A stretch of 40,056 nt of DNA from a virus. The stretch covers positions 1 through 40,056 of IMG/VR virus record IMGVR_UViG_3300006030_000046. One strand, 5' to 3'. Below the pieces are notes generated by a model. That model ran no database searches, was not told the origin of the DNA, and saw only the letters and a list, made by a program, of their open reading frames with translations. Within the stretch, counting starts at the first letter, position 1; each line of letters begins with the position of its first letter. The translations under genes and the position numbers were made by a program. Positions 1 to 39,555 of this stretch are shown here, in pieces.

Positions 1-144
1 GGCAGCACGTACAGAACAACTTCCAGTAGCCGAAAACGTAGGGGGAGTATGAGTCGCAGAACCAGAACAAGTGGCAGCACGTACAGAACAACTTCCAGTA
101 GCCGAAAACGTAGGGGGAGTGTGCGTTGCAGAACCAGAACACGT
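1..144 (-). repeat. 72-bp tandem repeat inside the LamG-domain gene
   Basis: Bases 1-72 recur at 73-144, almost identical over the first 48 bases and more diverged at the end. The unit is 24 codons, so the frame is kept, and it encodes a Cys/Ser/Thr-rich segment containing THTPPTFSATGSC. The array continues beyond position 1, so copy number is unknown. Confidence 0.85.
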
Positions 145-3646: not shown

Positions 3647-4012
3647 TCAGTTTCCTTTTAACCCCGCGATTAAAACTTCCAACCTTTGGAGTTGGACAAG
3701 AATTTGCGTTTGCTGGTCCCGAACCTCTTCAGCTCGCTTTTCCAAAACCTCCACTCGTTTCTTCCACTCAATAGAAGGGAGTTCGCTAATTCTGGCGTCA
3801 ATAGACTTGAAGGCCACCGCTGCTTCCGTTTTCGTAAAACCCTCGCTCTGTCGAAACGCTCGGTTTTCCACGGCCTCAATAGAGACCCAACCTAAGACCC
3901 CAGTAAGACTCCCGGCCAAAACCGGAAGCGACCATCGCATAAACCGTAACAGAACTCCATCTACCGCTTTACTAACAGAATCAGAGTTTTCCAATTCTTG
4001 TTGCGGTTTCAT
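3647..4012 (-). CDS. Membrane-anchored coiled-coil protein (XhlA/spanin-like layout)
   Basis: 121 residues. One hydrophobic span (SLPVLAGSLTGVLGWVSI, residues about 28-45) is followed by a long amphipathic helix, residues about 60-117, with heptad-like Leu/Val spacing (EVRDQQTQILVQLQRLEVLIAGL). A single anchor plus coiled coil is the layout of several phage lysis accessory proteins and tail-associated proteins. Sequence alone does not decide. It precedes a probable structural gene by one base. Confidence 0.6.
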   Translation of the reverse strand: MKPQQELENSDSVSKAVDGVLLRFMRWSLPVLAGSLTGVLGWVSIEAVENRAFRQSEGFTKTEAAVAFKSIDARISELPSIEWKKRVEVLEKRAEEVRDQQTQILVQLQRLEVLIAGLKGN

Positions 4013-4540: not shown

Positions 4541-4963
4541 TTAATCTCCTTCTTTCTTCTTAGTGGCGGCTCCGGCCTCCACCATACGTGAACTCGTGTC
4601 CTTCCCATCGACGACCAACCTACCTAAGAGTCGTCCAAATGTAATGGATTGGCTTAAGTTTGAATGAATTGGAATGGTGAGTTGTCCGTTCTTACCAGCA
4701 ACAAACTCTTCCAATTTCTTTTTAGACTTTAGGCCATCCTCTTTTTCTTCGCCCGTAATTTCTGGAGCCCAGCAATCAAGTAGCCGGACACTGACCCGCA
4801 CCGTTACATCCACTGTAACAGTATCCCCGTCGTGAACCGAGACTACTCGGCAAGGAAGAATGATAAACCCTTGAGCGGTACTTCCATCTTGGGCAAATAC
4901 GTAGGCAAGAAAACACAACACAAAGAAACAAGACAACATGGAGGAGGCTACTGCGGACTTCAT
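4541..4963 (-). CDS. Exported staphylococcal nuclease-like (SNase) protein
   Basis: 140 residues from ATG at 4963. The N-terminus MKSAVASS plus a hydrophobic core SCFFVLCFLAYVFAQ is a signal peptide, probably cut after AYVFA-Q. The remainder matches the SNase OB-fold: CRVVSVHDGDTVTVDV (the DGDT calcium-side motif), then VRLLDCWAPEI, equal to the family RLxGIDAPE segment, and FGRLLGRLVVDGK, equal to YGRxLxxxxxDG. The candidate catalytic residues are the Arg of VRLL, the Glu of APE and the Arg of FGR. Such enzymes cut DNA and RNA outside the cytoplasm. A longer start at 5029 is rejected because it would hide the signal peptide. The gene follows a structured terminator, suggesting its own control. 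Confidence 0.8.
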   Translation of the reverse strand: MKSAVASSMLSCFFVLCFLAYVFAQDGSTAQGFIILPCRVVSVHDGDTVTVDVTVRVSVRLLDCWAPEITGEEKEDGLKSKKKLEEFVAGKNGQLTIPIHSNLSQSITFGRLLGRLVVDGKDTSSRMVEAGAATKKKEGD

Positions 4964-4975
4964 TAAAACACCAAC

Positions 4976-5056
4976 TTTGTAAAAAGAAGCCCCTGGGGTG
5001 GCAGGTTGAAGGCAAATCAACTGTCGCACGGGCTGGGATGCGACCCCCAGGGGCTC
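4976..5056 (-). terminator. Large structured terminator before the SNase gene
   Basis: On the minus strand GAGCCCCTGGGG (5045-5056) pairs with CCCCAGGGGCTTC (about 4985-4997), followed by a T-rich run ending near 4979. A second hairpin, GTCGCA against TGCGAC (5023-5044), sits inside the loop. It starts eight bases after the stop of the 5064-5579 gene, so it ends that transcript, and it lies only 13 bases before the next ATG. Confidence 0.65.
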
Positions 5057-5063
5057 CGGGTTT

Positions 5064-5579
5064 TCAGGGGTTCGGAATAGGGGGCATCAACCCAGTACCA
5101 CCCACAAAATCGGGTCTCTCCTCAACAACCGGCTGAGGAGCTGGCTTCGTTGCCAAGTAAGTAGCCAATCCTGCGGCTGGTCCTCCTAAAGCTAATCCAG
5201 CTCCGACCAACCCTACTTTCGCTAAAGTAGACAATCCAGAACCTTGCGTTCCAACCCCTGACGGAGACGATAATGGGGCGGGTGGTTGCTGGTAATAATG
5301 AATCTCATCCCCTACACGAATACCCATAGCGTCCCCTTCTTCTGTTAGGGAACTCGAACTGTTGGGGTCAGTCATACCCAGCATACTCGCCTGATGATTT
5401 TTGGTCTGTTCCCGTTGGGACTTCAGTAGCTCCTGGGCGTCCTGAAGCATCATGGCCTCGTGCGCTTGCCGAATTCCCATCCACCTCTCCAGTGCCTTTT
5501 CCGTGTTGCTTTTCAAATTCGGCAACTGCGGCAGAGACTCGTTGGGCGGTGTCGTGGAGGTGTTTTCTGAAGCTACCAT
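5064..5579 (-). CDS. Unknown protein with C-terminal membrane segment
   Basis: 171 residues. AGAAGG nine bases before ATG at 5579 supports the start. The N-terminal half is polar with a helical stretch (AHEAMMLQDAQELLKSQREQ), the middle is Ser/Pro-rich, and residues about 118-145 form a Gly/Ala-rich hydrophobic segment (LAKVGLVGAGLALGGPAAG), then a Pro-rich tail. Small proteins of this kind occur in phage structural regions. It overlaps the 5368-5682 frame by 212 bases. No family recognised. Confidence 0.6.
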   Translation of the reverse strand: MVASENTSTTPPNESLPQLPNLKSNTEKALERWMGIRQAHEAMMLQDAQELLKSQREQTKNHQASMLGMTDPNSSSSLTEEGDAMGIRVGDEIHYYQQPPAPLSSPSGVGTQGSGLSTLAKVGLVGAGLALGGPAAGLATYLATKPAPQPVVEERPDFVGGTGLMPPIPNP

Positions 5580-5682
5580 TTTTGAAAGCCCTTCTTAGGT
5601 CTTGCTGCCGGGAGGCCGCTAGATCGGATTGATTAGCGGCCTCCCGAAGTGCAGCGAGCCGGGCTTCGTTAGAACTAGTCAC
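5368..5682 (-). CDS. Possible overlapping small protein
   Basis: 104 residues starting at GTG 5682, with GAGGGG six bases upstream. The first 60 residues are helical and charged (NEARLAALREAANQSDLAAS); the end is low complexity. Its last 212 bases overlap the 5064-5579 gene in another frame. Either both are real, or the two represent one protein joined by a frameshift, or this frame is translated only in its first part. The good ribosome site is the main support. Confidence 0.4.
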   Translation of the reverse strand: MTSSNEARLAALREAANQSDLAASRQQDLRRAFKNGSFRKHLHDTAQRVSAAVAEFEKQHGKGTGEVDGNSASARGHDASGRPGATEVPTGTDQKSSGEYAGYD

Positions 5683-5699
5683 ACGAAACCCCTCAAAAA

Positions 5700-5900
5700 T
5701 TACTTCCCGTCCGGCGAACCGTATTGGGGATGAGGGCCTTGGATGTATCGCACACCCAAGCCCTCAGTCAAAGAAACATTCGACTTACCTTCCAGGTAGT
5801 CGTACCGAAGGTTCTCCGCATAATGCGCAGCACCGTCGGCTTGCCGCTGAGCTCCATTCATTGCATGGATCTTCAGCATTCCGTAATCTTCCGGTCCCAT
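5700..5900 (-). CDS. Small unknown protein
   Basis: 66 residues from ATG at 5900, chosen because AAGGAG lies eight bases upstream; a GTG at 5921 in the same frame has a poorer site. The protein is soluble (GPEDYGMLKIHAMNGAQRQA, then a Tyr/Gly-rich end RYIQGPHPQYGSPDG). It stands between the protease gene and the overlapping pair. Function unknown. Confidence 0.6.
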   Translation of the reverse strand: MGPEDYGMLKIHAMNGAQRQADGAAHYAENLRYDYLEGKSNVSLTEGLGVRYIQGPHPQYGSPDGK

Positions 5901-5957
5901 TTGTAGGACTCCTTCGATCACTCACCTACTATTCACCCAACCCTGCGAAAACAGCGT

Positions 5958-7163
5958 TTACCGAGGCGAAGTAGTGTATTGTTGACCCCTGATATCCTGA
6001 AGCCGAATTGGCCCTGGATAGGGGTAATATTGCTCACCCACCAATTGTCCATAAACGTCATACCGCTGAACGTGAATTGGTGGAAGTTTTTTAAGGATCG
6101 CGGCAGCAATGGCATCCATATCAATCACCGCGTCTTTGCCGGCTGGCCCCCGTTCCCCTGCTGGTCCGGCTGGACCTTTTTCTCCGGCTGGTCCGGCTGG
6201 TCCCTTAAAACGTGGATCACTCGCCAATTTCTCCACCAACTGTCCCACCAGTTTCTCGGTATCCAATGCCGGAGCTGGTGGCTGAGCCACTGGAGGAGTT
6301 ACTGGAGGCTGTTGAGGCACAAGAGGAGGCGGCTGAGTTACTGGAGGCTGTTGGGGAGCCTGAATGGGGCTCCCAGGGGTTCCAATGGGGACAACAGGAG
6401 ACCCCGGAGCACTTGGAGGAGGTACCTGAGAAATAGGCGATTTAGGAGGCATCATGCCCCCGTAGTCCCCACCACCATAAGACGGCTGGGACGGCCCGCA
6501 AAACCCACCAAAACAACCCCCACCACGACTAAAAATCTGGCGGGCTTGGGGGTCCACCTCAATAAACTCTGTAACCCATTTTTGAGCAAGGCTACGAACA
6601 AAGCTTACGGGAGTGGAAGCACTTTCCTTACGACTACCACCTCCCCAGTTCACGGCAGTTAGACGACCCTGCTCATCAAACAACCCACTGCCAGAGTCAC
6701 CACTAATAGACTCCACACTAGAATCCCACACTGGCACACCGGGAGCCCGATGGCCACTGATTTTCATGAACTTCCCTGTTCCTTGTTTTAGTACAGAATC
6801 CCCACCATACCCAAACAAGAAACATGGCTTCGCCGGCTGAGGGTCTTCTCCCAATTCCACCCATTCCACGTCTCCTTGTGGAATGTAGATCAAGGCTAGA
6901 TCCGCTTGGGTGTCTCGGCTTACAACGTACCCTTCCCACCGCTTGCCCAAGAGTGGATGCAAAACTTCAGCCCGGCTGGCTCGGCCCACCACATGAGCAT
7001 TTGTCACAACAGCCCATTTAGAAATGCCCGTGGAACTGCCCCCACTTCGCCCACCACCACCAGAATTAACCCATACTCGGTAACTGGCTCGGGCTGGATG
7101 GGATTGTGCTTGGGCTACAGCCGAAAAAACAAACAACAAGCCAAGAAGGAACAAACGGTTCAT
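5958..7163 (-). CDS. Exported trypsin-like serine protease with collagen-like segment
   Basis: 401 residues from ATG at 7163, which overlaps the previous stop as ATGA; a longer frame to 7454 is a chance extension. Residues 1-20 (MNRLFLLGLLFVFSAVAQAQ) form a signal peptide. The chymotrypsin/HtrA-type triad is visible: VVTNAHVV with His57, DTQADLALIYI with Asp88, and SGDSGSG with Ser157. After about residue 220 comes a long Pro/Gln-rich linker (PPPLVPQQPPVTPP), then Gly-X-Y repeats (GPAGPAGEKGPAGPAGERG, about 320-343) that resemble a collagen trimerisation stalk, then a 58-residue tail with IAAAILKKLPPI. The protein should be exported and act as an endopeptidase, possibly as a trimer. It lies two genes after a holin-like protein, which suggests a late role at the envelope. 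Confidence 0.85.
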   Translation of the reverse strand: MNRLFLLGLLFVFSAVAQAQSHPARASYRVWVNSGGGGRSGGSSTGISKWAVVTNAHVVGRASRAEVLHPLLGKRWEGYVVSRDTQADLALIYIPQGDVEWVELGEDPQPAKPCFLFGYGGDSVLKQGTGKFMKISGHRAPGVPVWDSSVESISGDSGSGLFDEQGRLTAVNWGGGSRKESASTPVSFVRSLAQKWVTEFIEVDPQARQIFSRGGGCFGGFCGPSQPSYGGGDYGGMMPPKSPISQVPPPSAPGSPVVPIGTPGSPIQAPQQPPVTQPPPLVPQQPPVTPPVAQPPAPALDTEKLVGQLVEKLASDPRFKGPAGPAGEKGPAGPAGERGPAGKDAVIDMDAIAAAILKKLPPIHVQRYDVYGQLVGEQYYPYPGPIRLQDIRGQQYTTSPR

Positions 7164-7426
7164 CGAAAAATCCCCAAGGGGTCCAACACCTTTTTCCATG
7201 GAGGCGTTGTGTCCACCAACACAGAGGCTCCCTCCAATGGAACCACTTGAACAACTCGACCACGAAATCGGTTTTCTCCAAACCAAGCCGGCTTCAAAAG
7301 AAGCACCGATTTCCCAGGGATACCTAGAGGAGGCTGCATAGGAGGCGGTGGAGCCTGAATTGGAGATTGGGCTCGTACGCTTCCCACCAACACCAACACA
7401 CAGAGCAAACAAATCAAGTTCTTCAT
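7160..7426 (-). CDS. Small exported protein
   Basis: 88 residues with a clear signal peptide (MKNLICLLCVLVLVGSVRAQ), a Pro-rich segment and a short beta-like region containing RVVQVVPLEGASVLVD. It is coupled to the protease gene by an ATGA overlap, so the two are probably made together. A partner, inhibitor or carrier for the protease is possible, but nothing in the sequence proves it. Confidence 0.7.
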   Translation of the reverse strand: MKNLICLLCVLVLVGSVRAQSPIQAPPPPMQPPLGIPGKSVLLLKPAWFGENRFRGRVVQVVPLEGASVLVDTTPPWKKVLDPLGIFR

Positions 7427-7428
7427 CG

Positions 7429-7692
7429 CTATCTCCTTGCGCCAAACTTTGCAAGCCCTCGACTTCCCGTGTACCCGAGAGTCGAAAGGACCATTAACGC
7501 CAATGCGATAAGACGCATATGACGATCACTTTCCACCAAGCCACTGACGTAGAGGGCACAAAGAAAATTCGTTAAAAGAGTGAGCCACCACTCTGTCGTC
7601 TTGTACCCGGGACCAGACCCATTAGAGGAAGACACCTCTGCCTCTAATGCAGTGGAATCTAGAACCTCTGGAGTTTGATTAGACTCTGCCAT
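7429..7692 (-). CDS. Holin-like two-span membrane protein
   Basis: 87 residues from ATG at 7692, with GGAGGG ten bases upstream; a frame to 7719 is also open. A polar N-terminus precedes two hydrophobic spans (WWLTLLTNFLCALYVSGLV, about 33-51, and MRLIALALMVLSTLGYTG, about 57-74) separated by a short polar turn, and the end is basic (RGLAKFGARR). This is the layout of class II holins. It sits between the terminase and a group of exported proteins. Holins are a structural class rather than a sequence family, so the call is tentative. Confidence 0.55.
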   Translation of the reverse strand: MAESNQTPEVLDSTALEAEVSSSNGSGPGYKTTEWWLTLLTNFLCALYVSGLVESDRHMRLIALALMVLSTLGYTGSRGLAKFGARR

Positions 7693-7741
7693 AAACAGCC
7701 AACCCTCCATATACGCCAAAACTTATGTTAGGGATTCCAAG

Positions 7742-9313
7742 TTACTCATCAAACACAACTCCAAGAGACCGACGAACTGGTCCCCCATGAGCCTCCATAA
7801 TTTCCAAAAACTCTGCTGGCATCTGTTGTATTTCTTCTTTGGTAAGATCTGTCCCATCCAACACCAACTCGTCTTCGTCCATAAGCCGACGAGTCCCTGA
7901 ATCCAACATGGCCATCGCCCGGGGCAGCATCAAAACAAGAGCCGTCCCAACATCGGCGTGACCCGTTTCGTCCGAAACAGCCTCCAGCCGAAGACCATAA
8001 CTCTTTTCCACAATATTAAATTTTCCAAAGTCAGCCCGAAGCCTCCCCTCTAAATCTTCGTAGCTCTCCAATCGCCGACTGGAAATAAGCGATTTCAATG
8101 TATTCGCCATTTCATTAAGATTCTTACCCGAAAAGTTTACTTGCTCCGTTTGGACCCCCATGCGTGCGAGACGTTGCATCATGAGTTTAGCCTGATGCGG
8201 GTCGTAACAAAGCCTCTCCACCCGAAAATGCCGGCAGAGCTTTAAGCAAGAATTTTCAACATCAAGCAAATCTACTTCCCCCGTCTCGGCTGAGGGTTCC
8301 CACGCTCGAATTAACACCACTCGAATTAACTGGAGTCCATAATGAATTCCAGCGATTACGAAACCCGCATGATCATGGTTGACCCCAACATCTAGACCAG
8401 CAATATACCTCCATTGGGGAATAGGTTTCGTAAGCTCCTTAAGTTCTGGTTTGAATATGGAATCAATGTCACCCTCGTCAAAGGCATCCCCTTTACCACT
8501 AGCCCATTGCCCCCACCAAAGACGCTTATAACGGGAAGGGGGATTCCGTCTTCTAGCGTCTTCTAAACTGGATTTGGAATGCCAAGGGGCTGGCTTATCC
8601 CAAATAAAAGTTCTCCAGTCTGGACTCGCTAAAGCGTTTTTGCGAAGAATTTCTGCTTTAGTCCCACGAAAACCAGCATTGGTCGCCAAAATAACGACTC
8701 CATCTGGCACCCCATCCGCATTATCCAAAAGGTTTTCCACGAACTCCCACTTCGTAACGTGGCTCAATTCGTTGATCACCAAAAGATTAGGAGTTTCCCC
8801 GTGGGAACCCGCCACGTCCGCAGCAATGATATCAATTTCAGCCAAACCTCCCTTATGAATCACTTTATTGGCTTGGAGCTCAACAAACTGATCCAACCAC
8901 GGGTTCTGAAAAAGAATATCAGAAATACGACGTTTGATAATAGCGGCCTGATCCCGATCAGCCGCCCCAACTTGAATATAGAGTGGTTTCTGGGGGAAGC
9001 AAACCAACCAAAGCAATGAGGCTCCAATGTCCCCGTCTTTAGAAGCTTTCTTGGTACGCTCAATCCAAAAACGACGCAAAGGAGGCATTGTGCCATCCCG
9101 AACAGCGTGTAAAGAAGGAGCTAGACTGGCGAAGGTCTCCTGTTGAAAAGGAGCCAAGCAAGACCCCAAAAGACGGGGACCTTGACCAGAAGGAATTTTT
9201 AGACCTTGAATAAAGAGAGTAAAATCACGTGGACAAAAAGCCCGATAGGCTTTTTCCACTTTGATGGATTCTTCTTCCCAGTCTGTAAATTCAGTTTTCT
9301 TTTTTCCTGCCAT
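7742..9313 (-). CDS. terL: Terminase large subunit (packaging ATPase-nuclease)
   Basis: 523 residues, the usual TerL length. ATPase part: a degenerate Walker A at 84-94 (IERTKKASKDG), Walker B plus catalytic Glu at NLLVINELSH (176-185, Glu182), and the coupling motif ILATNAG (208-214). Nuclease part, RNase H fold: GLDVGVNHDHAG (Asp308), YDPHQAK (Asp371) and GHADVGTALVL near residue 470, which together supply the metal-binding acids. The protein pumps phage DNA into proheads and cuts concatemers. A terminator hairpin ends only seven bases before the ATG and no Shine-Dalgarno sequence is visible, so how it is expressed is unclear. The expected small subunit is not next to it; a candidate is at 21235-21975. 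Confidence 0.9.
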   Translation of the reverse strand: MAGKKKTEFTDWEEESIKVEKAYRAFCPRDFTLFIQGLKIPSGQGPRLLGSCLAPFQQETFASLAPSLHAVRDGTMPPLRRFWIERTKKASKDGDIGASLLWLVCFPQKPLYIQVGAADRDQAAIIKRRISDILFQNPWLDQFVELQANKVIHKGGLAEIDIIAADVAGSHGETPNLLVINELSHVTKWEFVENLLDNADGVPDGVVILATNAGFRGTKAEILRKNALASPDWRTFIWDKPAPWHSKSSLEDARRRNPPSRYKRLWWGQWASGKGDAFDEGDIDSIFKPELKELTKPIPQWRYIAGLDVGVNHDHAGFVIAGIHYGLQLIRVVLIRAWEPSAETGEVDLLDVENSCLKLCRHFRVERLCYDPHQAKLMMQRLARMGVQTEQVNFSGKNLNEMANTLKSLISSRRLESYEDLEGRLRADFGKFNIVEKSYGLRLEAVSDETGHADVGTALVLMLPRAMAMLDSGTRRLMDEDELVLDGTDLTKEEIQQMPAEFLEIMEAHGGPVRRSLGVVFDE

Positions 9314-9319
9314 AGAATG

Positions 9320-9350
9320 CTACAAAAAAAGGGACCGGATCTCTCCGGTC
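9320..9350 (-). terminator. Rho-independent terminator before terL
   Basis: On the minus strand GGGACCGGA-GAGA-TCCGGTCCC is a perfect nine-base stem with a four-base loop followed by seven T. It lies 100 bases after the CAP-protein stop and seven bases before the terL ATG. Confidence 0.85.
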
Positions 9351-9450
9351 CCCTCTGACTAGCTGAGGAAACACTACAACTAGTCAACACACAACAACAG
9401 GAAACAACACCCACCTCCTCGGAACCGGACTTTTCCAAATTACCAACGCT

Positions 9451-9987
9451 TTAACGTCGGGACAATCGGACTCTGGAAAACGACCGAACCCGAACCCGTG
9501 TAGAAGAACGGACATTCGAAAATCCAAGACCCCAATCCACCCCACTATGGGCCTGAGCATGAATGCTCACAGCATGTCCCCCACTGTACCCGAAACCCAC
9601 GCAAGGGGCACCGCACAGGAGATTTGCATTGTGACCACCACTCCTGATCCACATCTGAATGGAGCCAACCGGGTCAGAGCCAATCGCCACATTCTCGTTG
9701 ACTCCCCACGAACTATGACGCATTACCCCAGCGGAAGCATTTGCTTCTGCCAAGCGTTGGGCTTGCCGGCAGAGCCCTAGATCCAAAACCTGCCGAACCA
9801 AACCATGCCGCTCCCGATGTTGGCAATGGAGTTCGTACATCGTCTGGATTTCTTGGGTAACGCACTCGCACTTCTCTTTGGGGCATTGGCAAGCCTGTTC
9901 TTGTTTCTTGCAGCCACAAGAAGGTTCCGCGGCTCCCAAGACACTAGCCCAACAAATCCCCATGCCCACCAACAAAGATCGAAACAT
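9451..9987 (-). CDS. Exported CAP/SCP-domain protein
   Basis: 178 residues from ATG at 9987, seven bases after GGAGG; longer starts at 9990 and 10083 are less well placed. Residues 1-20 form a signal peptide (MFRSLLVGMGICWASVLGAA). A Cys/Lys-rich linker follows (CGCKKQEQACQCPKEKCEC). From about residue 70 the CAP (SCP/PR-1) signature appears: AQRLAEANASAGVMRHSS with His91, WGVNENVAIG with Glu98, and WIRSGGHNANLL with His119, the usual metal/active-site set. The C-terminus is basic (Arg/Ser-rich). CAP proteins are exported and some bind lipid, metal or act on cell walls. Their presence in a phage is unusual. The basic end could bind an anionic surface or DNA. Confidence 0.8.
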   Translation of the reverse strand: MFRSLLVGMGICWASVLGAAEPSCGCKKQEQACQCPKEKCECVTQEIQTMYELHCQHRERHGLVRQVLDLGLCRQAQRLAEANASAGVMRHSSWGVNENVAIGSDPVGSIQMWIRSGGHNANLLCGAPCVGFGYSGGHAVSIHAQAHSGVDWGLGFSNVRSSTRVRVRSFSRVRLSRR

Positions 9988-11806: not shown

Positions 11807-12622
11807 CTATCCAAAGCGGGAGTTATCGCCCATCATTGGAGGGGCGAGGCGTGAAGAAATCGACTGCTGGTACCGTTCCAACGTATAGTAACCAAAAAGC
11901 TCAGAAAGCCCCAACATACCTTTCGTGTTAATCACACTATTGGGGTCCGACGGATCTTCAGACGAAGGCATGGCCTTGAGTATATGCCCAGTTTCATCAC
12001 CCATTTCACCATCCGCGTAAAATTGGAACGGAGTGGGGCTCACAAACGTACCATCAAAAACTTCCGTAATCACAGGCACTCGGCTCATAGGGTCTGGAAG
12101 CGCCAAGTTATTCCAACAGGCTGACTCCACAAGCAGAGTGGGGATCATTGCAATGTCGCCTCCTGTTTTTTCTTCAATGGCCCCAAACTGAGTGGCCACG
12201 AAAATCATGGGACAGTAACCCATTTTTACGAGGTGTTTCGCCAGCCGAATCATGGTCAGGGTGGACTGTTCTGCCGTGTCAAAGTTAATGTCCACACCAT
12301 CTGCGTCTTCATGGTCTGGAGCCAGCGGGAAAAATGTGATCACCCGCATATCAAATCGACGCCACTTTTCCACGCCAAGGGCCTTGTGCTCAGGACAAGA
12401 AGGAACGACTTCTTTTGCATACAACTCCTCCACAGTAAGGAGTGGAACACACCCCACAGAAAGGATATTGAGTGGGGAGGAAGAGCCTTTGTCGTGGAGC
12501 TCCTTTAAGAATGCAACCGTTTTTTGGACCATCCGTTGTCGAAATTGCTGGAGCTGCTGAGTCACAACTTGATCAATGGAAAGATTCGACCATTGGCTGG
12601 TGTCTTTTGGCAGTTCGCTCAT
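11807..12622 (-). CDS. Unknown 271-residue protein
   Basis: Soluble, with a helical N-terminus (VVTQQLQQFRQRMVQKTVAFLKEL), then VLTVEEL-like and TFFPLAPDHEDADGVDINFD, and an alternating alpha/beta middle containing RLAKHLVKMGYCPMIFVATQF. The pattern of a hydrophobic strand after a helix recalls small regulatory or accessory proteins, but no catalytic motif is visible. It precedes no obvious operon partner and lies directly after thyA. Function unknown. Confidence 0.65.
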   Translation of the reverse strand: MSELPKDTSQWSNLSIDQVVTQQLQQFRQRMVQKTVAFLKELHDKGSSSPLNILSVGCVPLLTVEELYAKEVVPSCPEHKALGVEKWRRFDMRVITFFPLAPDHEDADGVDINFDTAEQSTLTMIRLAKHLVKMGYCPMIFVATQFGAIEEKTGGDIAMIPTLLVESACWNNLALPDPMSRVPVITEVFDGTFVSPTPFQFYADGEMGDETGHILKAMPSSEDPSDPNSVINTKGMLGLSELFGYYTLERYQQSISSRLAPPMMGDNSRFG

Positions 12623-12692: not shown

Positions 12693-13484
12693 TTAAACAG
12701 AAATTGGCGCCTGAATAAAGGGATAGGGATCGTAATCAAAAAACTCAATATCCGAAAACTGAAAATCAAAAATGGATTCCCGGTTCTTTAGCTTTAAGAC
12801 AGGCAGAGGTTTTGGAGTTCTCTCCAATTGCTTCCAAGCCTGAGCCAAATGATTACAGTAGAGATGAATATTCCCAAAAGCAAACCGCAGCCGAGCCGGG
12901 GCCAATCCGCAGACCTTGGCGATCATGTGCGTGAGCAGAGCGTAAGAGGCGATATTAAACGGAACCCCAAGAAAAACGTCGGCACTCCGCTGATACACTT
13001 GGCAAGACAAGTCGCCATCGTACACGTCAAACTGGAATAAGAGATGGCAGGGTGGCAAATGCATCTGTTCCAACTGGCCCACGTTCCAAGCACTTACCAC
13101 GAGCCGGCGACTGTTGGGGTCCTCCTTAATTCGCTTTATGACGTCTGCTATCTGGTCAATGTACTTCCCCTCGAGCGTTGGCCAACTTCGCCATTGGACC
13201 CCGTAAACAGGACCTAGCTCGCCATCGCTATCTGCCCATTGGTCCCAAATCCGAACCCCGTTTTCTTGGAGGTAAGCGATATTGGAGCTCCCTTGCAAAA
13301 ACCACAAGAGCTCGTGAACTATTGCCGGGATGATCATTTTCTTAGTGGTTAAGAGTGGAAAGCCTTCCCGCAAATCAATATCTAATGCCTCCCCAAATAA
13401 CCGAAGAGCCCCTGTCCCAGTTCGGTCCATTTGGTAGCAGCCCTGAGTCGTTACCTTATACAGCAAATCCAAGTAAGAACGCAT
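12693..13484 (-). CDS. thyA: Thymidylate synthase
   Basis: 263 residues, the family's standard length. The enzyme methylates dUMP to dTMP with methylene-tetrahydrofolate. Visible markers, numbered as in E. coli ThyA, are the active Cys146 in LPPCHLLFQF, Arg-containing SRRLVVSAWN, QRSADVFLGVPFN with Asn177, and HLYCNH near the end. Asn177 is the residue that favours dUMP; an Asp there would suggest a dCMP hydroxymethylase, so normal thymine is predicted. The gene raises dTTP supply during replication and fits with the MazG-like and DUF1599 genes upstream. ATG at 13484 starts the family N-terminus. Confidence 0.95.
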   Translation of the reverse strand: MRSYLDLLYKVTTQGCYQMDRTGTGALRLFGEALDIDLREGFPLLTTKKMIIPAIVHELLWFLQGSSNIAYLQENGVRIWDQWADSDGELGPVYGVQWRSWPTLEGKYIDQIADVIKRIKEDPNSRRLVVSAWNVGQLEQMHLPPCHLLFQFDVYDGDLSCQVYQRSADVFLGVPFNIASYALLTHMIAKVCGLAPARLRFAFGNIHLYCNHLAQAWKQLERTPKPLPVLKLKNRESIFDFQFSDIEFFDYDPYPFIQAPISV

Positions 13485-15536: not shown

Positions 15537-15989
15537 TCAGGCTTTCTTTTTGTCGAGAAACCTGTCGAGACCTTCCGCAACGCACTTATCCACAGCCTTC
15601 TTGACTGCGGAGATGATGGTGTGATCCATCATTGCCTTGACGGAATCGCTCTCAAGGTATTGCTTCACGGCCTCGCACACCAAAGAGTCTGTTGCCGACT
15701 TGATGGACGCCATAACCTCAGGACGCAGGGTAAACTTGGAGCCCCAACTGGCGTTGTTCCAGTTTCCAAGTTGTTGCTCGATAACCTGACGAGCGATTCC
15801 CCTGGCTTCGCCAATCGCTCGGTCCACTTCTTTCTGCATCTGCGATTTAATTTCAGGGGTGAGCAAGGCCTCCGAATACTTCTCCCGAATCGCCTTCACT
15901 GCGGCATGGGATAGCTCGATCATAGCTTCGGGATCTGCTTCCAGAAGCCTTTCTAGAACGGGAACGGTTAAGCGAATTGTAATAGTCAT
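15537..15989 (-). CDS. Helical protein, intact copy of a duplicated pair
   Basis: 150 residues, almost entirely helical, starting MTITIRLTVPVLERLL and rich in Ala, Glu and Lys. It is a close relative of the 16822-17264 gene, with which it shares long identical stretches (LTPEIKxQMQKEVDRAI, QWNNASWGSKF). The duplicate's frame is broken, while this copy reads to its natural end (VDKCVAEGLDRFLDKKK). The start overlaps the 15986 gene stop as ATGA. No domain is recognised. Confidence 0.7.
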   Translation of the reverse strand: MTITIRLTVPVLERLLEADPEAMIELSHAAVKAIREKYSEALLTPEIKSQMQKEVDRAIGEARGIARQVIEQQLGNWNNASWGSKFTLRPEVMASIKSATDSLVCEAVKQYLESDSVKAMMDHTIISAVKKAVDKCVAEGLDRFLDKKKA

Positions 15990-16821: not shown

Positions 16822-17264
16822 TTAAGACTTAAGGAGTTTTTCTAAACCTTTTTCGACCTGCTTATCCACCGCTTTCTTAACTGCGGAGATAATGGCGTGA
16901 TCCATTGTGGCCTTGGCAGAATCACTCTCCAAGTATTTTTCACGGCCTCGTGCACCATCGTCTCCGTTGCCGATTTGAGGGACGCCATAACATCAGGACG
17001 TAAGGCAAACTTGGAGCCCCAACTGGCGTTGTTCCACTGTCCAAGCTGTTGCTCAATTGCTTGGGTGGCAATGATCTTGGCTTCGCAAATCGCTCGGTCC
17101 ACCTCTTTCTGCATCTGTGCTTTAATTTCAGGAGTAAGCAAAACCTCCGAATATTTCTCCCGTATCGCACCTACTGCCGCATGGGACAGCTCCATCATGA
17201 CGTTGGGGTCCGCTACCAGAAGACGCTCCAAAACAGGAACAGTTAAGCGAATTGTAATGGTCAT
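16822..17264 (-). pseudogene. Second copy of the duplicated helical gene, frame-broken
   Basis: This copy aligns with 15537-15989 from its start (MTITIRLTVPVLERLL) to EAVK. There an A5 run (16936-16940) is one base shorter than the frame needs. The reading frame then ends at 16842 with an unrelated tail (TWRVILPRPQWITPL). Adding one base restores YLESDSAKATMDHAIIS and a natural stop at 16822-16824, matching copy one. The loss could be a sequencing error in a homopolymer, transcriptional slippage or real decay. The close similarity of both DNA copies indicates a duplication. Function unknown. Confidence 0.65.
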
Positions 17265-28789: not shown

Positions 28790-29911
28790 CTAAAATGGAA
28801 TGTCGTCGTCCTCGTCGTCTTCCACTGGAGGCTTTTTCTTCTTCGGCGGAGGTGCGTCTGGAAGTTTTTTCTTCGGTGCTGGCTCGTCATCGAAATCGTC
28901 ACCGTCCTCGTCGTCTTCCACCGGAGGCTTTTTCTTCTTCGGAACCGGCACTTCGTCCTCGTCGTCGTCCTCTACATCTACGGGTGGAGCTTTCTTTTTC
29001 TTCGGTGGAGGTGCATCGTCCTCGTCACCGTCCTCGTCGTCTTCCACCGGAGGCTTTTTCTTCTTCGGTGGAGGTGCATCGTCCTCGTCACCGTCCTCGT
29101 CGTCTTCCACCGGAGGCTTTTTCTTCTTCGGTGGAGGTGCGTCGTCCTCGTCACCGTCCTCGTCGTCGGCTCCATCCTCATCTTTCTGTAAGAAAATGGC
29201 CTTCAGTTTTTCCGTGGAAAGAATAATGGGCATGTTGTCTAAACATGGAGCCGATTCTACCAAATCAGGGTCCAATGCTTTAGAGCGCAACTTGAATTGG
29301 ATGTCCACCACCTCACAAAACGTATTGCCACCCAGCGATTTTTCCTCCGCGGTGATCTTAAGGGTACAACCATCGTCTGGATTGGCAAACCGTTTGAACT
29401 GCTTTTCGTCCTCATCCAAATTCCGCAACCGCGTGTCCAGCAACTTGCCGAACAAGTGGAACGAAACATCCCAAAGCTGAATACCTTTATCCGGTTCAGC
29501 ATAGTTGTAGATCAAAAACAACTGCCGCTCTTTGGGACTCAGTGACTTGATCAACTCCTCATCTGCATTAGGGTCGTCTGCCAAAGACGCCCGATAACTG
29601 CAAATAGGGCACGTCTTGCCAGCCGTTTTTCGCGGACAGACGTAAGCATCCTTGTTCGCCCCAATATCCCGGTGAACGAAGAAGGTTCGTTCGTAGTAAA
29701 GCTGTCCAGGCTTACAAAAGGGATTTCCCTCACCAGTCGTAAATGGGATGATGTCGAAACGGTAGGTTCCCGGTCGTTTCAATTGAAACAAACCAAGCCC
29801 TTCCGGAATTTTCAACGTAGTGCGGTCGAACCCCGTTTTATGGTTCCGTAGCCGACCCTCCACATTTACTTCGCGCCGTTGTTCTCGACGCTCCCTGTCC
29901 GTTTTACTCAT
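28790..29911 (-). CDS. gp32-like ssDNA-binding protein with repeat tail and SSB-type tip
   Basis: 373 residues; AAAGGAG seven bases upstream. Residues 1-240 resemble T4 gp32: a basic N-terminal arm (MSKTDRERREQRREV), an OB-fold with FHVSW-like strands, and a zinc site formed by CPRKTAGKTCPICSYR. Then comes a low-complexity tail of about 120 residues built from a 21-residue unit containing DAPPPKKKKPPVEDDEDG, repeated about five times. The protein ends EDDDIPF. That DDDIPF tip is the same as the partner-binding tip of bacterial SSB and not the T4 gp32 end. It should cover ssDNA and recruit replication proteins; the DDDIPF end may let host SSB partners join. Confidence 0.85.
   Translation of the reverse strand: MSKTDRERREQRREVNVEGRLRNHKTGFDRTTLKIPEGLGLFQLKRPGTYRFDIIPFTTGEGNPFCKPGQLYYERTFFVHRDIGANKDAYVCPRKTAGKTCPICSYRASLADDPNADEELIKSLSPKERQLFLIYNYAEPDKGIQLWDVSFHLFGKLLDTRLRNLDEDEKQFKRFANPDDGCTLKITAEEKSLGGNTFCEVVDIQFKLRSKALDPDLVESAPCLDNMPIILSTEKLKAIFLQKDEDGADDEDGDEDDAPPPKKKKPPVEDDEDGDEDDAPPPKKKKPPVEDDEDGDEDDAPPPKKKKAPPVDVEDDDEDEVPVPKKKKPPVEDDEDGDDFDDEPAPKKKLPDAPPPKKKKPPVEDDEDDDIPF
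28800..29170 (-). repeat. 63-bp tandem repeats encoding the SSB tail
   Basis: A 63-base unit (21 codons: EDGDEDDAPPPKKKKPPVEDD-like) recurs at about 28970-29160 in three good copies, with shorter, diverged copies to 28805. It explains the spurious Ser-rich frame on the plus strand. Confidence 0.8.
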
Positions 29912-31523: not shown

Positions 31524-32924
31524 TTAAAGTGCAAACTTGTAAATGTCATCCACTTTCTTTTTGTCGTGCCAAGAACCACCTACGGGGGTCACCTCCGCCT
31601 CAATCTTAAGGTTTACAATAATCCATTTCCAATGCTCCATTAACCGATCCACCATGATCTCTTTGGCCAAAATCAAATAGTCTTGGACACAACTCACATG
31701 CACATCGGCCAAAATACTGTCATGGATTTGACCTACCAACAAAGCGTCCATCTTCCGCCGGCGAAGCTGACGAGAAATTTGAATAAAGGACCAAAGAAGA
31801 CAATGGAAAGCAGACCCTTGAATCGGGTAATTGATCACGTCATTTCGCCCGTAAATTCCATCAATACGAAATCCAGTTAAGGTATTAAATCCCCCATTTT
31901 TCAAGTAACTCTCAAACCAATCTTCCCGCCACCTTCCATATACCTGAAAACGCCGACCCCAAAAATCGTCTTCCACATCTTTCAAATGATCCATGAAAGT
32001 TCCCGGTTCTGGCTTGTAATCAGACACAGAACCCAACTTCGTAACTCCCTTAGCCGCTAAATGATCTTTAACCCGCGTCCCATCTTCCAAAGTCAAAGAC
32101 ATGGAATCCAAAGCATTCCACAAATTAACAGCACACTGGGCATAGTAACTCCCATAAAATTCTGGAAAGACGAACATATTCTTCCCACAATAACGAAGCT
32201 GCTTAGTGACCTGTTTTGGCTTCAGCTTGTAACATTGAGCCGCCATATCCCGGTGCATATCTTTTCCGGGATTTTCAATGTACTGAATCATCGTGGGGTC
32301 TTTGTGGTAACAAGCCGCCACCAAAACCTCTACACCAGAATAATCCAATTCCACCAACACCCGATCTTTCCCACGAGGAATAAAACAAGAACGAATGTAC
32401 GCCCCAACTTCTTGATCCCGAATCGGAATGTTTTGGAAATTGATACTGTCACTAGAACTGCGGTAAGTTCTAGCTATGTGGAGATTGAAAAAAGAGTGGA
32501 GGTAGCCGTCGCACACCTCCCGCTGCAACCCCAAAAGAAAAGTACCATGAAGTTTTTTCCACCTCTCTATTTCCAGAAACATTTTGCAAAAGGGGTGATC
32601 AATATTAGCAAGAGTGGCCTCGTCCAAAATGTAACGATTCGTGTCATGGTTCTGCTCCCCCTTAAATCCCAACTCCTTAAACAAAATTCTAGCCAACTGA
32701 GGACGACTCCCCATGTTGGCCTTTCCCCCGTAAATCTTTAACCACAATCGCCAAACGTCTGTCTGCCGTATCTGGGCGGTCAGCTGTTTAACACGGCCTT
32801 CCACCTCTTGGATGTTAGCCGTCAGACGTTCCACATCTACACAAATCCCATTTGCCTCCATACCAGAAAACTCTACCAACCCATCACGCAAAAGCTGGTA
32901 AGCCTCAAAAGTAACTGGTTTCAT
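31524..32924 (-). CDS. Family A DNA polymerase, polymerase module only
   Basis: 466 residues from ATG at 32924, overlapping the UDG/exonuclease gene stop as ATGA. Family A motifs: INFQNIP (160s), motif A VELDYSGVEV (Asp194), motif B KQLRYCGKNMFVFPEFYG (241-258, here Cys where most have Phe/Tyr), NYPIQGSA (365-372), and motif C QIHDSIL (Asp402). The finger/palm core is complete, but the proofreading domain is absent and is encoded by the previous gene. The enzyme copies phage DNA with clamp, loader, SSB and exonuclease from neighbouring genes. The split at the exonuclease/polymerase border is unusual. Confidence 0.9.
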   Translation of the reverse strand: MKPVTFEAYQLLRDGLVEFSGMEANGICVDVERLTANIQEVEGRVKQLTAQIRQTDVWRLWLKIYGGKANMGSRPQLARILFKELGFKGEQNHDTNRYILDEATLANIDHPFCKMFLEIERWKKLHGTFLLGLQREVCDGYLHSFFNLHIARTYRSSSDSINFQNIPIRDQEVGAYIRSCFIPRGKDRVLVELDYSGVEVLVAACYHKDPTMIQYIENPGKDMHRDMAAQCYKLKPKQVTKQLRYCGKNMFVFPEFYGSYYAQCAVNLWNALDSMSLTLEDGTRVKDHLAAKGVTKLGSVSDYKPEPGTFMDHLKDVEDDFWGRRFQVYGRWREDWFESYLKNGGFNTLTGFRIDGIYGRNDVINYPIQGSAFHCLLWSFIQISRQLRRRKMDALLVGQIHDSILADVHVSCVQDYLILAKEIMVDRLMEHWKWIIVNLKIEAEVTPVGGSWHDKKKVDDIYKFAL

Positions 32925-34171
32925 AGCCAATCTTTCATGGAAATACCAAATTGAACCATTTGCTTTTCAGCAACACGGTACTCCAACAAAGAGTCCAATC
33001 CATTGTAAAGCAAAAGATCATGGAGGTTCACTTGCTCTAAAATCTGATTTGTGCGCAAGTTAGAATTATTGGAAGACAGAAACTTGGAAATGTGATCATC
33101 GTAACTCTCCGCTCCCAACAATACAAAAGATTGGAACTTTAACCCACAAATTCCAGGTCTGTTATCTAATGCGTGTGCTGCAGTCATCGTACACCACGCC
33201 CAATTCTTAACGGGCTTGCCAAACTCCATTCTGGACCAACGATCCTCCATTTTGAGATTACTGGCGATCTTAGGCATAGAAGAACGAATTAACCGTCCCA
33301 TCGCCGGCACAGCAGCACCACGCCAAGGAAATGCTATGGTTTTCTTCCCATTCCAACATACGGAACAAGACAAAATTTCAGCATCAAACCAATCTGGCTT
33401 GAGCATAGTGGTCTCGTAATCAAATGCCACAACACCACCACGCTCTACCATCTTGTCCAAAATTCTAGCCGCCTCATCCGTATCTAAAACGAGTTCAACC
33501 TCCTTAATTTCGTTTGGTATCTCGTCATATGGACGACCAGATAATTGAAGGGCTGATTCCAAATGCCGACGAAACCACAAATTAGGAACCGGATCTTTTT
33601 TACGGGACTCTAGAGTGCGTAAAACATAATTCGGATCATATGTGGGGCAAATCCAACAATTCCATTTCCGACACGGAATTTGAAATCCAGTCCAACGGCT
33701 CAAAATACCAACATCCTCTTTCCAAATCGATCCAATGATACTCTGAACCGCTTCGTAACCCAACAAAAGGATGACTTGTGGCCGCAACTGCTCAATAGTG
33801 CGTATTAAATTTGGACGGCAATAACCAATCCTGTCTGAAATGGAAACTTCGACATTCCCCTCATTTTGTTTTTTAGACAAATGACAAATGAGGGCGTTGT
33901 CATACCAGTAATCTTCCTCAGGATCACCACCCAAAGATCTCAAAGTTCGTTTAAGAAACTTACCAGTCCGTCCTACAAAATGAGTCCCTTCTAAATCCTC
34001 CTCTTTCCCTGGAAAGTCGCCCACAATTAAAATTCTTCGGCGCCCATTACCACTAAAAGACATCTTTGGGGATTTGCAGCCCTTGTAAAGACCACAAGCC
34101 CCACAAAGCGGAATTGTGGGGCTTGGTTTCTTACTTTGGGCCAGTGTAGAACCGGAAAAAAAGCCTTTCAT
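32921..34171 (-). CDS. Uracil-DNA glycosylase fused to 3'-5' exonuclease
   Basis: 416 residues; ATGA overlap with the clamp gene. N-terminal 210 residues match family 4-type UDG: an iron-sulphur Cys set (CGACGLYKGC at 23-32, C118 and C175), GDFPGKEEDLEGTHFVGRTG (the GExPGxxED motif), and TYDPNYVLR in place of the usual HPSxxLR. C-terminal part has the DnaQ/Pol A exonuclease motifs: FDYETT (Asp251, Glu253), NLKMEDRW (Asp310), and YNGLDSLLEYRV (YxxxD, Asp393). It would remove uracil and proofread DNA. SPO1-like phages have a UDG domain fused to a whole polymerase; here the fusion is UDG-exonuclease and the polymerase is separate. The loss of His in the HP motif may lower UDG activity. Confidence 0.85.
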   Translation of the reverse strand: MKGFFSGSTLAQSKKPSPTIPLCGACGLYKGCKSPKMSFSGNGRRRILIVGDFPGKEEDLEGTHFVGRTGKFLKRTLRSLGGDPEEDYWYDNALICHLSKKQNEGNVEVSISDRIGYCRPNLIRTIEQLRPQVILLLGYEAVQSIIGSIWKEDVGILSRWTGFQIPCRKWNCWICPTYDPNYVLRTLESRKKDPVPNLWFRRHLESALQLSGRPYDEIPNEIKEVELVLDTDEAARILDKMVERGGVVAFDYETTMLKPDWFDAEILSCSVCWNGKKTIAFPWRGAAVPAMGRLIRSSMPKIASNLKMEDRWSRMEFGKPVKNWAWCTMTAAHALDNRPGICGLKFQSFVLLGAESYDDHISKFLSSNNSNLRTNQILEQVNLHDLLLYNGLDSLLEYRVAEKQMVQFGISMKDWL

Positions 34172-35220: not shown

Positions 35221-35395
35221 TCCCTTTCTTCTTCAAGTAGTTTTCTTTCCGCTTGTCCTTGATCATCTTAAAACGCTTGGTCAATTTTCCAGATTGGTAC
35301 ATTGGCCAAAACGTCAACATCAGAGTGCATTCGTTTCTCAAAGCTATTTCTGGCTGAGACCAATGACTCCCATCCCCTGAATAGTAAAGGATCAT
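35195..35395 (-). CDS. 66-residue protein coupled to the DpdA gene
   Basis: The ATG at 35395 overlaps the DpdA gene stop as ATGA. The sequence begins MILYYSGDGSHWSQPEIAL, then TLMLTFWPMYQSGKLTKRFK and ends with a basic stretch (KKKGNVRGKGKS). The opening resembles the small 'YYSGxGS...PE..L...MLTF' proteins that I associate with phage deazaguanine loci. A DNA-contacting or helper subunit of DpdA is possible, but this has not been shown. It also overlaps the clamp gene start, linking the modification and replication operons. Confidence 0.6.
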   Translation of the reverse strand: MILYYSGDGSHWSQPEIALRNECTLMLTFWPMYQSGKLTKRFKMIKDKRKENYLKKKGNVRGKGKS

Positions 35396-36342
35396 ATGAG
35401 ACCGAACCCCTTAATGGAAACCCGGTTCTTCAAATGGAATGGAAATGGATAAGCCGGCATCGATTCCACCATTCGTTGGTAAAACATCAGATTTGCATAC
35501 CGCCTTTCCACGTGTCTCGTCACCACACCATATTCCAAAACTTCGTAAGTGCCATCGGGATTCCACTTCCACTTCCCAAGACCAACTCCAATATCAGACA
35601 ACCACTTACGAACGATAGCTTTCTCTCCGGAGGATAACGTGAAATAATGATAGCCACGTTCCCTTCGCTTGGGTGAATCAATGCTCACACCCAAGATATA
35701 AGGCTGTTCCGTAAAGACAAACTCACCCCGGCGCTGGTGAGGGACAGAAATGCCACCAAAAGCCCCAATCTTTGTCCAACTGGTGCTGTCCACCGAATAC
35801 CAAGGGTACCGCAACAACAACTCGTAAGACGTCACACCAAAGCCATGAATACGGACTCGGGGACAACGAGAGGGGTTGTCACACAAAAAATCAAAGCAAC
35901 GATCCAACCACCCACGGCAATGTTCTTGAGTAAGACTTCCAACCAATCCACCAAGAGCAATAAAATCGTAACCCTCGTCCACATAACGCTTCAACCAATC
36001 CAAAGAAGTGCGATAATGGACAACAGGAACCGGATTCAACCCGTGAGTCTGTTCTAAATACTTTTGATTGCGATACGTGAGTTCTGGATTTGGAATGGCG
36101 TCCACATTGGCATAGTGGTCTATGGCATAGTGGAACTTTTGAACAAAAGCGGCATAGCTGTCAAGGTACTCATAAAAGTCAGGAGTGTCGTAATACGCCC
36201 ACTGATCTGTTTTATTTTCCTTGGCATACTCTGCCGCTTTAGTCCAAATAGTGAAAGCCCCACTATCTAAAAAATGGGACTTTACACAACCACACTCCCA
36301 ATCCTCATTAGGATCAGGCAAATTCAATTTCTCACGAACCAT
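35392..36342 (-). CDS. dpdA: DpdA-type DNA deazaguanine transglycosylase
   Basis: 316 residues. The TIM-barrel pattern of tRNA-guanine-transglycosylase relatives is visible: HFLDSGAFTIW (the first aspartate of the TGT active site), NVDAIPNPELTYRNQKYLE, VPVVHYRTSLDWLKRYV, FIALGGLVGS, VRIHGFGVTSYELLLRYPW then YSVDSTSW (second aspartate and substrate site). Phage DpdA enzymes exchange guanine for preQ0 in DNA. The upstream genes QueD, QueE, QueC and FolE make preQ0, so the product is likely dPreQ0. No QueF, ArcS or Gat domain is in the window, so no later step is predicted. It is joined to FolE by one base and coupled to the next small gene. Confidence 0.8.
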   Translation of the reverse strand: MVREKLNLPDPNEDWECGCVKSHFLDSGAFTIWTKAAEYAKENKTDQWAYYDTPDFYEYLDSYAAFVQKFHYAIDHYANVDAIPNPELTYRNQKYLEQTHGLNPVPVVHYRTSLDWLKRYVDEGYDFIALGGLVGSLTQEHCRGWLDRCFDFLCDNPSRCPRVRIHGFGVTSYELLLRYPWYSVDSTSWTKIGAFGGISVPHQRRGEFVFTEQPYILGVSIDSPKRRERGYHYFTLSSGEKAIVRKWLSDIGVGLGKWKWNPDGTYEVLEYGVVTRHVERRYANLMFYQRMVESMPAYPFPFHLKNRVSIKGFGLI

Positions 36343-36343
36343 T

Positions 36344-37276: not shown

Positions 37277-37454
37277 GATGTTCCGTTTCCTTTCTAGCAT
37301 CCACAATAGCTTGAATTTCGGATCGGTTGATAGTGACCTCTCGTGGGGCTTCGATTCCCAGCTTCACATGAGTTCCAGACACTTCCACCACCAACACGCG
37401 AATATTGCCACCAATGATAATAGATTCATTGGCTTTTCTACTTAGCACCAACAT
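37269..37454 (-). CDS. csrA: CsrA-type translational regulator
   Basis: 61 residues, the normal CsrA length. The sequence MLVLSRKANESIIIGGNIRV, then KLGIEAPREVTINRSEI, has the conserved RNA-binding residues Leu4, Arg6-like and Arg44. CsrA binds GGA loops near Shine-Dalgarno sites and changes translation or mRNA stability. Its presence between queC and folE suggests it acts on this operon or on host mRNA. The leader of folE contains AAGGAAACGGAAC, with two GGA motifs, a possible target. It begins three bases after queC ends. Confidence 0.9.
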   Translation of the reverse strand: MLVLSRKANESIIIGGNIRVLVVEVSGTHVKLGIEAPREVTINRSEIQAIVDARKETEHHG

Positions 37455-37456
37455 GA

Positions 37457-38149: not shown

Positions 38150-38150
38150 T

Positions 38151-38942: not shown

Positions 38943-39007
38943 AGTACAAATCTCCCCATAATAGAAATTCCCTTCCCTACATAATCGGCCCTGATGGACC
39001 AAAGGCA

Positions 39008-39463: not shown

Positions 39464-39493
39464 AATTATGGCTCCTTCTTTTCGGGTACCAAC

Positions 39494-39528
39494 AAAAAAA
39501 AAAGACTAGCGGTTCGCCGCTAGTCTTT
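39494..39528 (-). terminator. Rho-independent terminator before queD
   Basis: AAAGACTAGCGG and CCGCTAGTCTTT (39517-39528, 39501-39512) form a 12-base stem with a four-base CGAA loop, followed by ten T on the minus strand. It ends 31 bases before queD, and 27 bases after the stop of the winged-helix gene. It also reads well in the other direction. Confidence 0.9.
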
Positions 39529-39555
39529 TTAAGAAACACAACTGAATGGAGAGGA

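What the first reader, a model, noticed from the sequence alone, without database searches (positions are those of the whole stretch)
4541..9987. Cluster of exported enzymes around the terminase: a protein-based lysis idea
Four exported proteins (CAP, trypsin-like, 88-residue, SNase) and a holin-like protein lie together, and no peptidoglycan hydrolase is visible in the window. If the host has a protein-rich envelope, proteases could do the job of an endolysin. This is a hypothesis.
Basis: inference. Interest (0 to 1): 0.65.

Follow-up and report, generated by a model that had tools for sequence, protein, structure and literature searches.

The report
Phage terminase-linked secreted protease cluster
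A phage that probably infects Planctomycetes, and a clade of its uncultured relatives, keep exported proteins and a protein-cutting enzyme just downstream of the DNA-packaging gene, where one relative also has a known holin, and no ordinary cell-wall enzyme could be found anywhere in the phage's genome; this hints that proteases help open the host at lysis, but nobody has tested it.

Summary
CAP (9987-9451), an 88-residue protein (7426-7160), a trypsin-like protease (real start 7163, stop 5958) and an SNase-like protein (4963-4541) carry Sec-type signal peptides. A two-helix holin-like protein (7692-7429) sits just downstream of terL, and holin-like, 88-aa and trypsin genes abut or overlap. 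The window is a fragment, but an 86-kb IMG/VR record of the same phage overlaps it at both ends, giving a closed ~93.8-kb map. These are the only convincing exported proteins in the genome (chance of such clustering ~9e-4). In 11 of 11 distinct relatives with enough sequence, a trypsin- or papain-type peptidase lies 1.6-5.5 kb past terL; signal peptides concentrate there (14/83 ORFs vs 9/1245 elsewhere), and one relative has a true holin family there. So 'proteases in a lysis-type locus' gains support. 'Proteases replace the endolysin because the host wall is protein' does not: the likely host phylum has peptidoglycan, and an unrecognised lysin or host autolysins remain possible. Best reading: a terminase-linked envelope-breakdown module using exported endopeptidases. 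Function is untested.

The parts
9451..9987 (-). Exported CAP/SCP-superfamily protein, 178 aa, signal MFRSLLVGMGICWASVLGA, Cys-rich stretch before the CAP domain
   Evidence: profile to PDB CAP/SCP; planctomycete homologues 32-42%
9331..9352 (-). Strong intrinsic-terminator-like hairpin (GGGACCGGA GAGA TCCGGTCCC then T7) between CAP and terL
   Evidence: (-37 kcal/mol for the 81-nt region, z -4.9)
7742..9313 (-). terL, terminase large subunit, 523 aa
   Evidence: phrog_9 2.2e-24; relatives 42-58%
7429..7692 (-). Holin-like small membrane protein, 87 aa, two hydrophobic helices, motif GY[KR]T[TS]E[FW]W ... LGYT.SR
   Evidence: neighbours in other phages include amidase, M15, lysozyme, glycosidase
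7160..7426 (-). Exported 88-aa protein of unknown function, signal MKNLICLLCVLVLVGSVRA; good SD (AAGGAG)
5958..7163 (-). Exported trypsin-like (S1, HtrA/DegP-like) serine protease, 401 aa, with Pro-rich linker, collagen-like repeats and C-terminal LPPIHVQ... segment; start overlaps the 88-aa stop (ATGA)
   Evidence: same architecture directly downstream of terL in L370
5700..5921 (-). 73-aa protein, homologue at the same place in L370
   Evidence: 8e-4
5368..5682 (-). 104-aa protein, unknown
5064..5579 (-). 171-aa protein with glycine-rich hydrophobic segment; homologue in L370
   Evidence: 4.6e-5
4541..4963 (-). Exported SNase-like (thermonuclease-type) protein, 140 aa; syntenic non-exported SNase in L370
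3647..4012 (-). Membrane helix + coiled-coil protein, 121 aa (spanin-/XhlA-like by shape only); similar-shape genes in the same block of most relatives
   Evidence: no PDB match

Best explanation
The stretch is a terminase-linked envelope-breakdown (lysis-type) module. After terL come, apparently translationally coupled, a holin-like membrane protein, an 88-aa exported protein and an exported trypsin-family endopeptidase with a collagen-like stalk; an exported SNase-like nuclease and a membrane-anchored coiled-coil protein follow. Inferred mechanism: the protease is secreted by Sec and accumulates outside the inner membrane, perhaps held by the 88-aa partner or the membrane potential; when the holin-like protein depolarises the membrane, the protease cuts envelope proteins (wall/outer-membrane tethers, S-layer or stalk proteins, or pro-autolysins), helping the cell burst, while the nuclease thins released DNA. 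The peptidoglycan itself is cut by host autolysins or by a phage enzyme not yet recognised. Shown: gene set, export signals (by sequence), catalytic residues, gene coupling, absence of recognised peptidoglycan hydrolases, and clade-wide recurrence of peptidases and secreted proteins there. Inferred: every functional step.
For: Operon geometry. No recognised lysin in the closed ~93.8-kb map. Same-architecture exported protease directly after terL, then the 73-aa, 171-aa and SNase homologues in the same order, in L370. An exported trypsin-like plus a papain-like peptidase in L348; papain C1A-type peptidases in eight relatives by profile, two more by eye: two unrelated peptidase clans occupy one locus. 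L347 has an annotated-holin-family gene at +1.9 kb after the terL match start. Holin-like family beside amidase, M15, lysozyme and glycosidase genes elsewhere. Signal peptides: 14/83 ORFs downstream of terL vs 9/1245 elsewhere. Some viral structures similar to the papain type are annotated with peptidoglycan-binding or N-acetylmuramidase. Exported lysis enzymes triggered by holin depolarisation are a known principle (PMC6116005).
Against: No functional data. Most holin-like relatives (about 65 of 79) have no recognised lysin next door, and many sit beside capsid or tape-measure genes, so 'holin' is a family guess. L370 has no holin-like gene between terL and protease. A Sec-exported enzyme does not need a holin for release. 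A terminator separates CAP from the operon. The structural genes after this block mean the peptidases could instead serve virions. Lysin absence rests on HMMs only.
Confidence: 0.43

Rival explanations
1. Secreted accessory enzymes unrelated to lysis: CAP, protease and nuclease are periplasmic or extracellular cargo for superinfection exclusion, surface remodelling or digestion of host material; lysis is done by an unrecognised lysin.
For: CAP has cellular homologues in Planctomycetes and lies behind a terminator; SNase and thioredoxin-like secreted genes in the block fit accessory cargo; many genes of the genome are unassigned.
Against: Does not explain why peptidases of two unrelated families always sit after terL, nor the coupling of protease to a holin-like gene.
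Confidence: 0.32
2. Entry or virion enzymes: the peptidases are carried in or on virions to breach a protein coat at entry, or process structural proteins.
For: Collagen-like repeats match tail-fibre PHROGs; the block is followed by tail-fibre-like genes (Laminin_G); the papain-type peptidases of relatives mostly lack signal peptides.
Against: Window, L348 and L370 proteases carry Sec signals, unusual for virion proteins; head-maturation protease and MuF genes lie elsewhere.
Confidence: 0.13
3. Strict version of the reader's idea: the host wall is mainly protein, and the exported proteases fully replace an endolysin.
For: No recognised peptidoglycan hydrolase in the closed map nor, by homology to six lysin seeds, in 142 loci of relatives; peptidase always present after terL.
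Against: Likely hosts are Planctomycetota, whose tested members have lysozyme-sensitive peptidoglycan (PMC4432640).
Confidence: 0.08
4. Non-lytic (chronic) release, as reported for Phage-ZRK32 of a deep-sea planctomycete, so that no endolysin is needed.
For: Literature precedent only (PMC10945688).
Against: This is a tailed phage with terL, portal, capsid and tape measure and a ~94-kb genome, and it has a holin-like gene.
Confidence: 0.03

Closest known systems
Exported-endolysin lysis systems (Sec-exported Lys44 of Oenococcus phage fOg44; SAR endolysins), PMC6116005
   Same: Enzyme with its own export signal, encoded next to a holin-like protein; a holin could act by depolarisation
   Different: The enzyme is a trypsin-family endopeptidase, not a muralytic enzyme; no activity shown
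Canonical terL-linked holin/endolysin cassettes
   Same: Position downstream of terL, coupled genes, holin-like gene; relative L347 has an annotated holin family there
   Different: No recognisable peptidoglycan hydrolase anywhere in the mapped genome
HtrA/DegP-type S1 proteases (5y28 1.7e-5)
   Same: Trypsin fold by sequence, catalytic triad, periplasmic destination
   Different: No PDZ domain seen; Pro-rich linker, collagen-like repeats and a C-terminal segment shared with L370
Papain-family C1A peptidases of uncultured Caudovirales (BFVD A0A6J5QDM8 and others)
   Same: Same fold and motifs as the relatives' peptidases in this locus
   Different: Present in relatives, not in the window phage; role unknown there too
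CAP/SCP superfamily proteins of Planctomycetota
   Same: Exported CAP domain, 32-42% identity
   Different: Phage copy has a Cys-rich N-terminal stretch and a basic tail

Membership tests
Holin-endolysin lysis cassette | Encodes a peptidoglycan hydrolase | tested here: not met
   No Pfam or PHROG lysin in cassette or rest of closed map; Amidase_2 and M15_3 absent even at E<=10
Holin-endolysin lysis cassette | Encodes a holin | tested here: inconclusive
   Small two-helix protein; no PHROG or Pfam holin match, but its family neighbours lysins in a subset of phages
Holin-endolysin lysis cassette | Late expression and lysis phenotype | not testable with these tools
   Needs host and time course
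S1 trypsin-like serine peptidase | Family profile and His/Asp/Ser triad | tested here: met
   Trypsin_2 2.2e-15; H57, D88, S157; DegP-like PDB hits
S1 trypsin-like serine peptidase | Export signal (periplasmic type) | tested here: met
   MNRLFLLGLLFVFSAVA|Q by own scan
CAP/SCP superfamily | CAP domain similarity with conserved His and Trp/Ser-x-x-His motifs | tested here: met
   Single sequence below Pfam reporting, profile A6 to CAP structures, invariant H91, W113, H119
SNase/thermonuclease | SNase profile and catalytic residues | tested here: inconclusive
   PHROG endonuclease 9.9e-14, Pfam 17.7 bits vs cut-off 21; by eye the Arg35/Glu43/Arg87 equivalents are kept and the Ca-ligand Asp40 equivalent is Trp
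i-/o-spanin pair | TM-anchored coiled-coil plus outer-membrane lipoprotein | tested here: inconclusive
   TM+coiled-coil at 3647-4012; no lipoprotein partner flagged in the signal scan
Papain C1A peptidase (relatives only) | Cys/His/Asn motifs and fold | tested here: met
   Profile A10 to 3ois 9.2e-14; AlphaFold model pLDDT 75 matches 3ois, cathepsins

The most novel reading that the evidence does not exclude
A clade of tailed phages of Planctomycetota lyses its hosts with endopeptidases (exported trypsin-type or papain-type, swapped for one another at one terminase-linked locus) instead of a dedicated phage peptidoglycan hydrolase, either by cutting protein tethers of the envelope or by activating host autolysins.
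Probability: 0.2. Interest if true: 0.85.

Novelty: new variant of a known kind. Interest (0 to 1): 0.6.

Why it matters
Known dsDNA tailed phages are taught to need a muralytic endolysin. A clade in which a true endopeptidase always occupies the terminase-linked slot, with no recognised peptidoglycan hydrolase in the one genome that can be mapped in full, would either reveal a protease-dependent way to open diderm bacteria or expose a new lysin family. Both are directly testable, and they bear on the long debate about planctomycete envelopes and on phages of a phylum with few isolates.

Tried and rejected
'Window too small to tell': solved with the 86,048-bp record. Close relatives by single-protein search: none for TerL, trypsin or CAP; MCP, UvsX and a TerL alignment then opened the clade. 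Planctomycete chromosomal TerL homologues: no synteny. Cellular trypsin hits: generic DegP or spurious. Protein 11807-12622 was mistaken for ThyA (ThyA is 12693-13484), so those empty results mean nothing; the true ThyA is uninformative on host. AlphaFold of the window trypsin alone failed (pLDDT 41). Second CAP-bearing viral contig L225: its suspected terminase neighbour could not be confirmed. Paper searches for protease-based phage lysis found no precedent in the held library.
Full report
What the window is. The window is an entire IMG/VR virus record of 40,056 bases, a likely fragment, with nearly all genes on the - strand. PHROGs and Pfam show 7-deazaguanine (queuosine-type) genes, clamp, a DNA polymerase in two ORFs, clamp loader, UvsY, UvsX, exonuclease, RusA and SbcC-like genes, thymidylate synthase, MazG, terL and one structural protein, but no portal, capsid or tape measure.

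The missing half. A TerL search returned an 86,048-base record, IMGVR_UViG_3300025848_000034, 100% identical over terL. BLASTN shows window 1-29028 equals that record's first 29.0 kb reversed, and window 36764-40056 equals its last 3.3 kb. The window thus bridges the record's ends across 7.7 kb, giving a closed map of about 93.8 kb. The other part holds portal, MuF, prohead protease/capsid, tape measure, tail-fibre-like proteins, transferases, helicase, primase and DnaB.

No recognised peptidoglycan hydrolase. PHROGs or Pfam was run on essentially every plausible gene of the map, including ORFs in gaps. No amidase, lysozyme, transglycosylase, CHAP, NlpC/P60, M15 or M23 family appeared. In some searches only the best 25 families are printed, so a match weaker than about 1e-3 could be hidden. 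Amidase_2 and M15_3 were also sought directly in six frames up to E=10 with nothing found, while the control genomes rang. Absence by HMM is not proof of absence.

The cluster. CAP, 88-aa, trypsin-like and SNase-like proteins have Sec-type signal peptides. The trypsin start is ATG 7163, overlapping the 88-aa stop; the 88-aa gene starts 3 nt after the holin-like stop with a good SD. The trypsin-like protein has the full triad (H57, D88, S157), a Pro-rich linker, collagen-like repeats and a C-terminal segment. CAP was confirmed by a profile with planctomycete homologues. A strong terminator hairpin separates CAP from terL, so CAP probably belongs to the upstream transcription unit. A simple signal-peptide scan found no other convincing exported protein in the genome; four such genes within 5.45 kb of a 93.8-kb circle has probability about 9e-4.

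Host. The phage CsrA (window 37269-37454) is closest to CsrA of Planctomycetaceae/Schlesneria-type genomes. The CAP protein has homologues in 5 of 11 and, at a stricter threshold, 9 of 246 planctomycete genomes, and in 0 of 28 genomes of other phyla. Planctomycetota is the likely host phylum (inference).

The holin-like family. An alignment with two homologues from planctomycete bins retrieved at least 369 IMG/VR relatives. Among 121 same-strand neighbours in 55 loci, Pfam found Amidase_2 (4), M15_3 (3), phage lysozyme (1), Rv2525c-like glycosidase (1) and a lytic-transglycosylase-type DPBB domain (1); some lie within about 10-310 bases. That is roughly four times what one lysin per about 50 genes would give (own estimate). 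Most relatives have no lysin next door, and many sit beside capsid or tape-measure genes, so the holin assignment is plausible, not proven.

The clade. The major capsid protein and UvsX have many relatives (51-64% and up to 69%), and a TerL alignment retrieved TerL relatives, the closer ones at about 39-58%, with flanks. In eleven distinct relatives with at least 5 kb after terL (L345, L347, L348, L349/L350, L351, L352, L354, L356, L357, L366, L370) a peptidase lies in the block. L370 has an exported trypsin-like protein of the same architecture (signal, protease, collagen repeats, LPPVRMQ... tail) about 100 bases after terL, followed by homologues of the window's 73-aa, 171-aa and SNase genes in the same order. 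L348 has an exported trypsin-like and a papain-like peptidase. Eight relatives carry papain C1A-type peptidases by profile (A10 to 3ois, 9.2e-14; model pLDDT 75 matches 3ois and cathepsins); L345 and L366 are papain-like by eye only. L347 has, 1.9 kb after the terL match start, a gene whose relatives are annotated holins in many phages. Signal peptides occur in 14 of 83 ORFs in this block against 9 of 1245 in other sampled parts of the same clade (Fisher p about 2e-12, not corrected for relatedness). Six lysin seeds hit nothing in 142 clade loci, 1.37 Mb. This is the strongest evidence: unrelated peptidase families keep returning to one terminase-linked, secretion-rich locus.

How it most likely works. 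Shown: genes, signals, catalytic residues, coupling, clade recurrence, lack of recognised lysins. Inferred: late expression; Sec export; activation or release when the holin-like protein depolarises the membrane, as for exported endolysins (PMC6116005); cleavage of envelope proteins; wall cleavage by host autolysins or an unrecognised lysin; DNA thinning by the SNase. The relatives' papain-type enzymes mostly lack signals and could be holin-released; two viral proteins of similar fold are annotated as N-acetylmuramidase or peptidoglycan-binding, a weak hint to lysis.

Rivals are secreted cargo unrelated to lysis, virion or entry enzymes (the collagen repeats and nearby tail genes fit), strict replacement of an endolysin, and chronic release (PMC10945688). 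None is excluded.

Noticed in passing
window 37269-37454: Phage-encoded CsrA (Pfam CsrA 3.3e-22 on the identical gene of the 86-kb record); a post-transcriptional regulator carried between queuosine-type genes.
   Followed up: partly
window 35392-39463: TGT-like, FolE, QueC, QueE, QueD set: probable 7-deazaguanine DNA modification.
   Followed up: no
window 31524-34171: DNA polymerase in two adjacent ORFs matching successive parts of one PHROG (phrog_17 475-825 and 832-1238): a split polymerase or a frameshift.
   Followed up: no
L356:10649-12478: Papain-like peptidase interrupted at its catalytic Cys by an intein-like stretch (CHTEDTEVLSNRGW ... VLISGN|CW), by eye.
   Followed up: no
window 9331-9385: Two tandem stem-loops, the second a strong terminator, ending 17 nt upstream of the terL start codon.
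   Followed up: partly
window 15664-15963 and 16939-17238: 80% identical 300-bp direct repeats: recent gene duplication (15537-15989 and 16842-17264).
   Followed up: no
window 1-144; 39834-40056; 28802-29173: 72-bp tandem repeat at the very start; repeats encoding Lys/Ala-rich acidic tails at the end and in the SSB gene.
   Followed up: no
L003:17242-18990 and L007:3996-6782: ADP-ribosyltransferase family matches (PF03496 in two proteins of the set A2); the MuF-like head protein matches ADP-ribosyltransferase PHROGs.
   Followed up: no
L005:12785-13441: Phage-encoded sigma-70 region-2 protein (Pfam 4.9e-7).
   Followed up: no
L225:9926-10273: A second, unrelated viral contig (45 kb) encodes a CAP relative (40% over about 80 aa).
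   Followed up: partly
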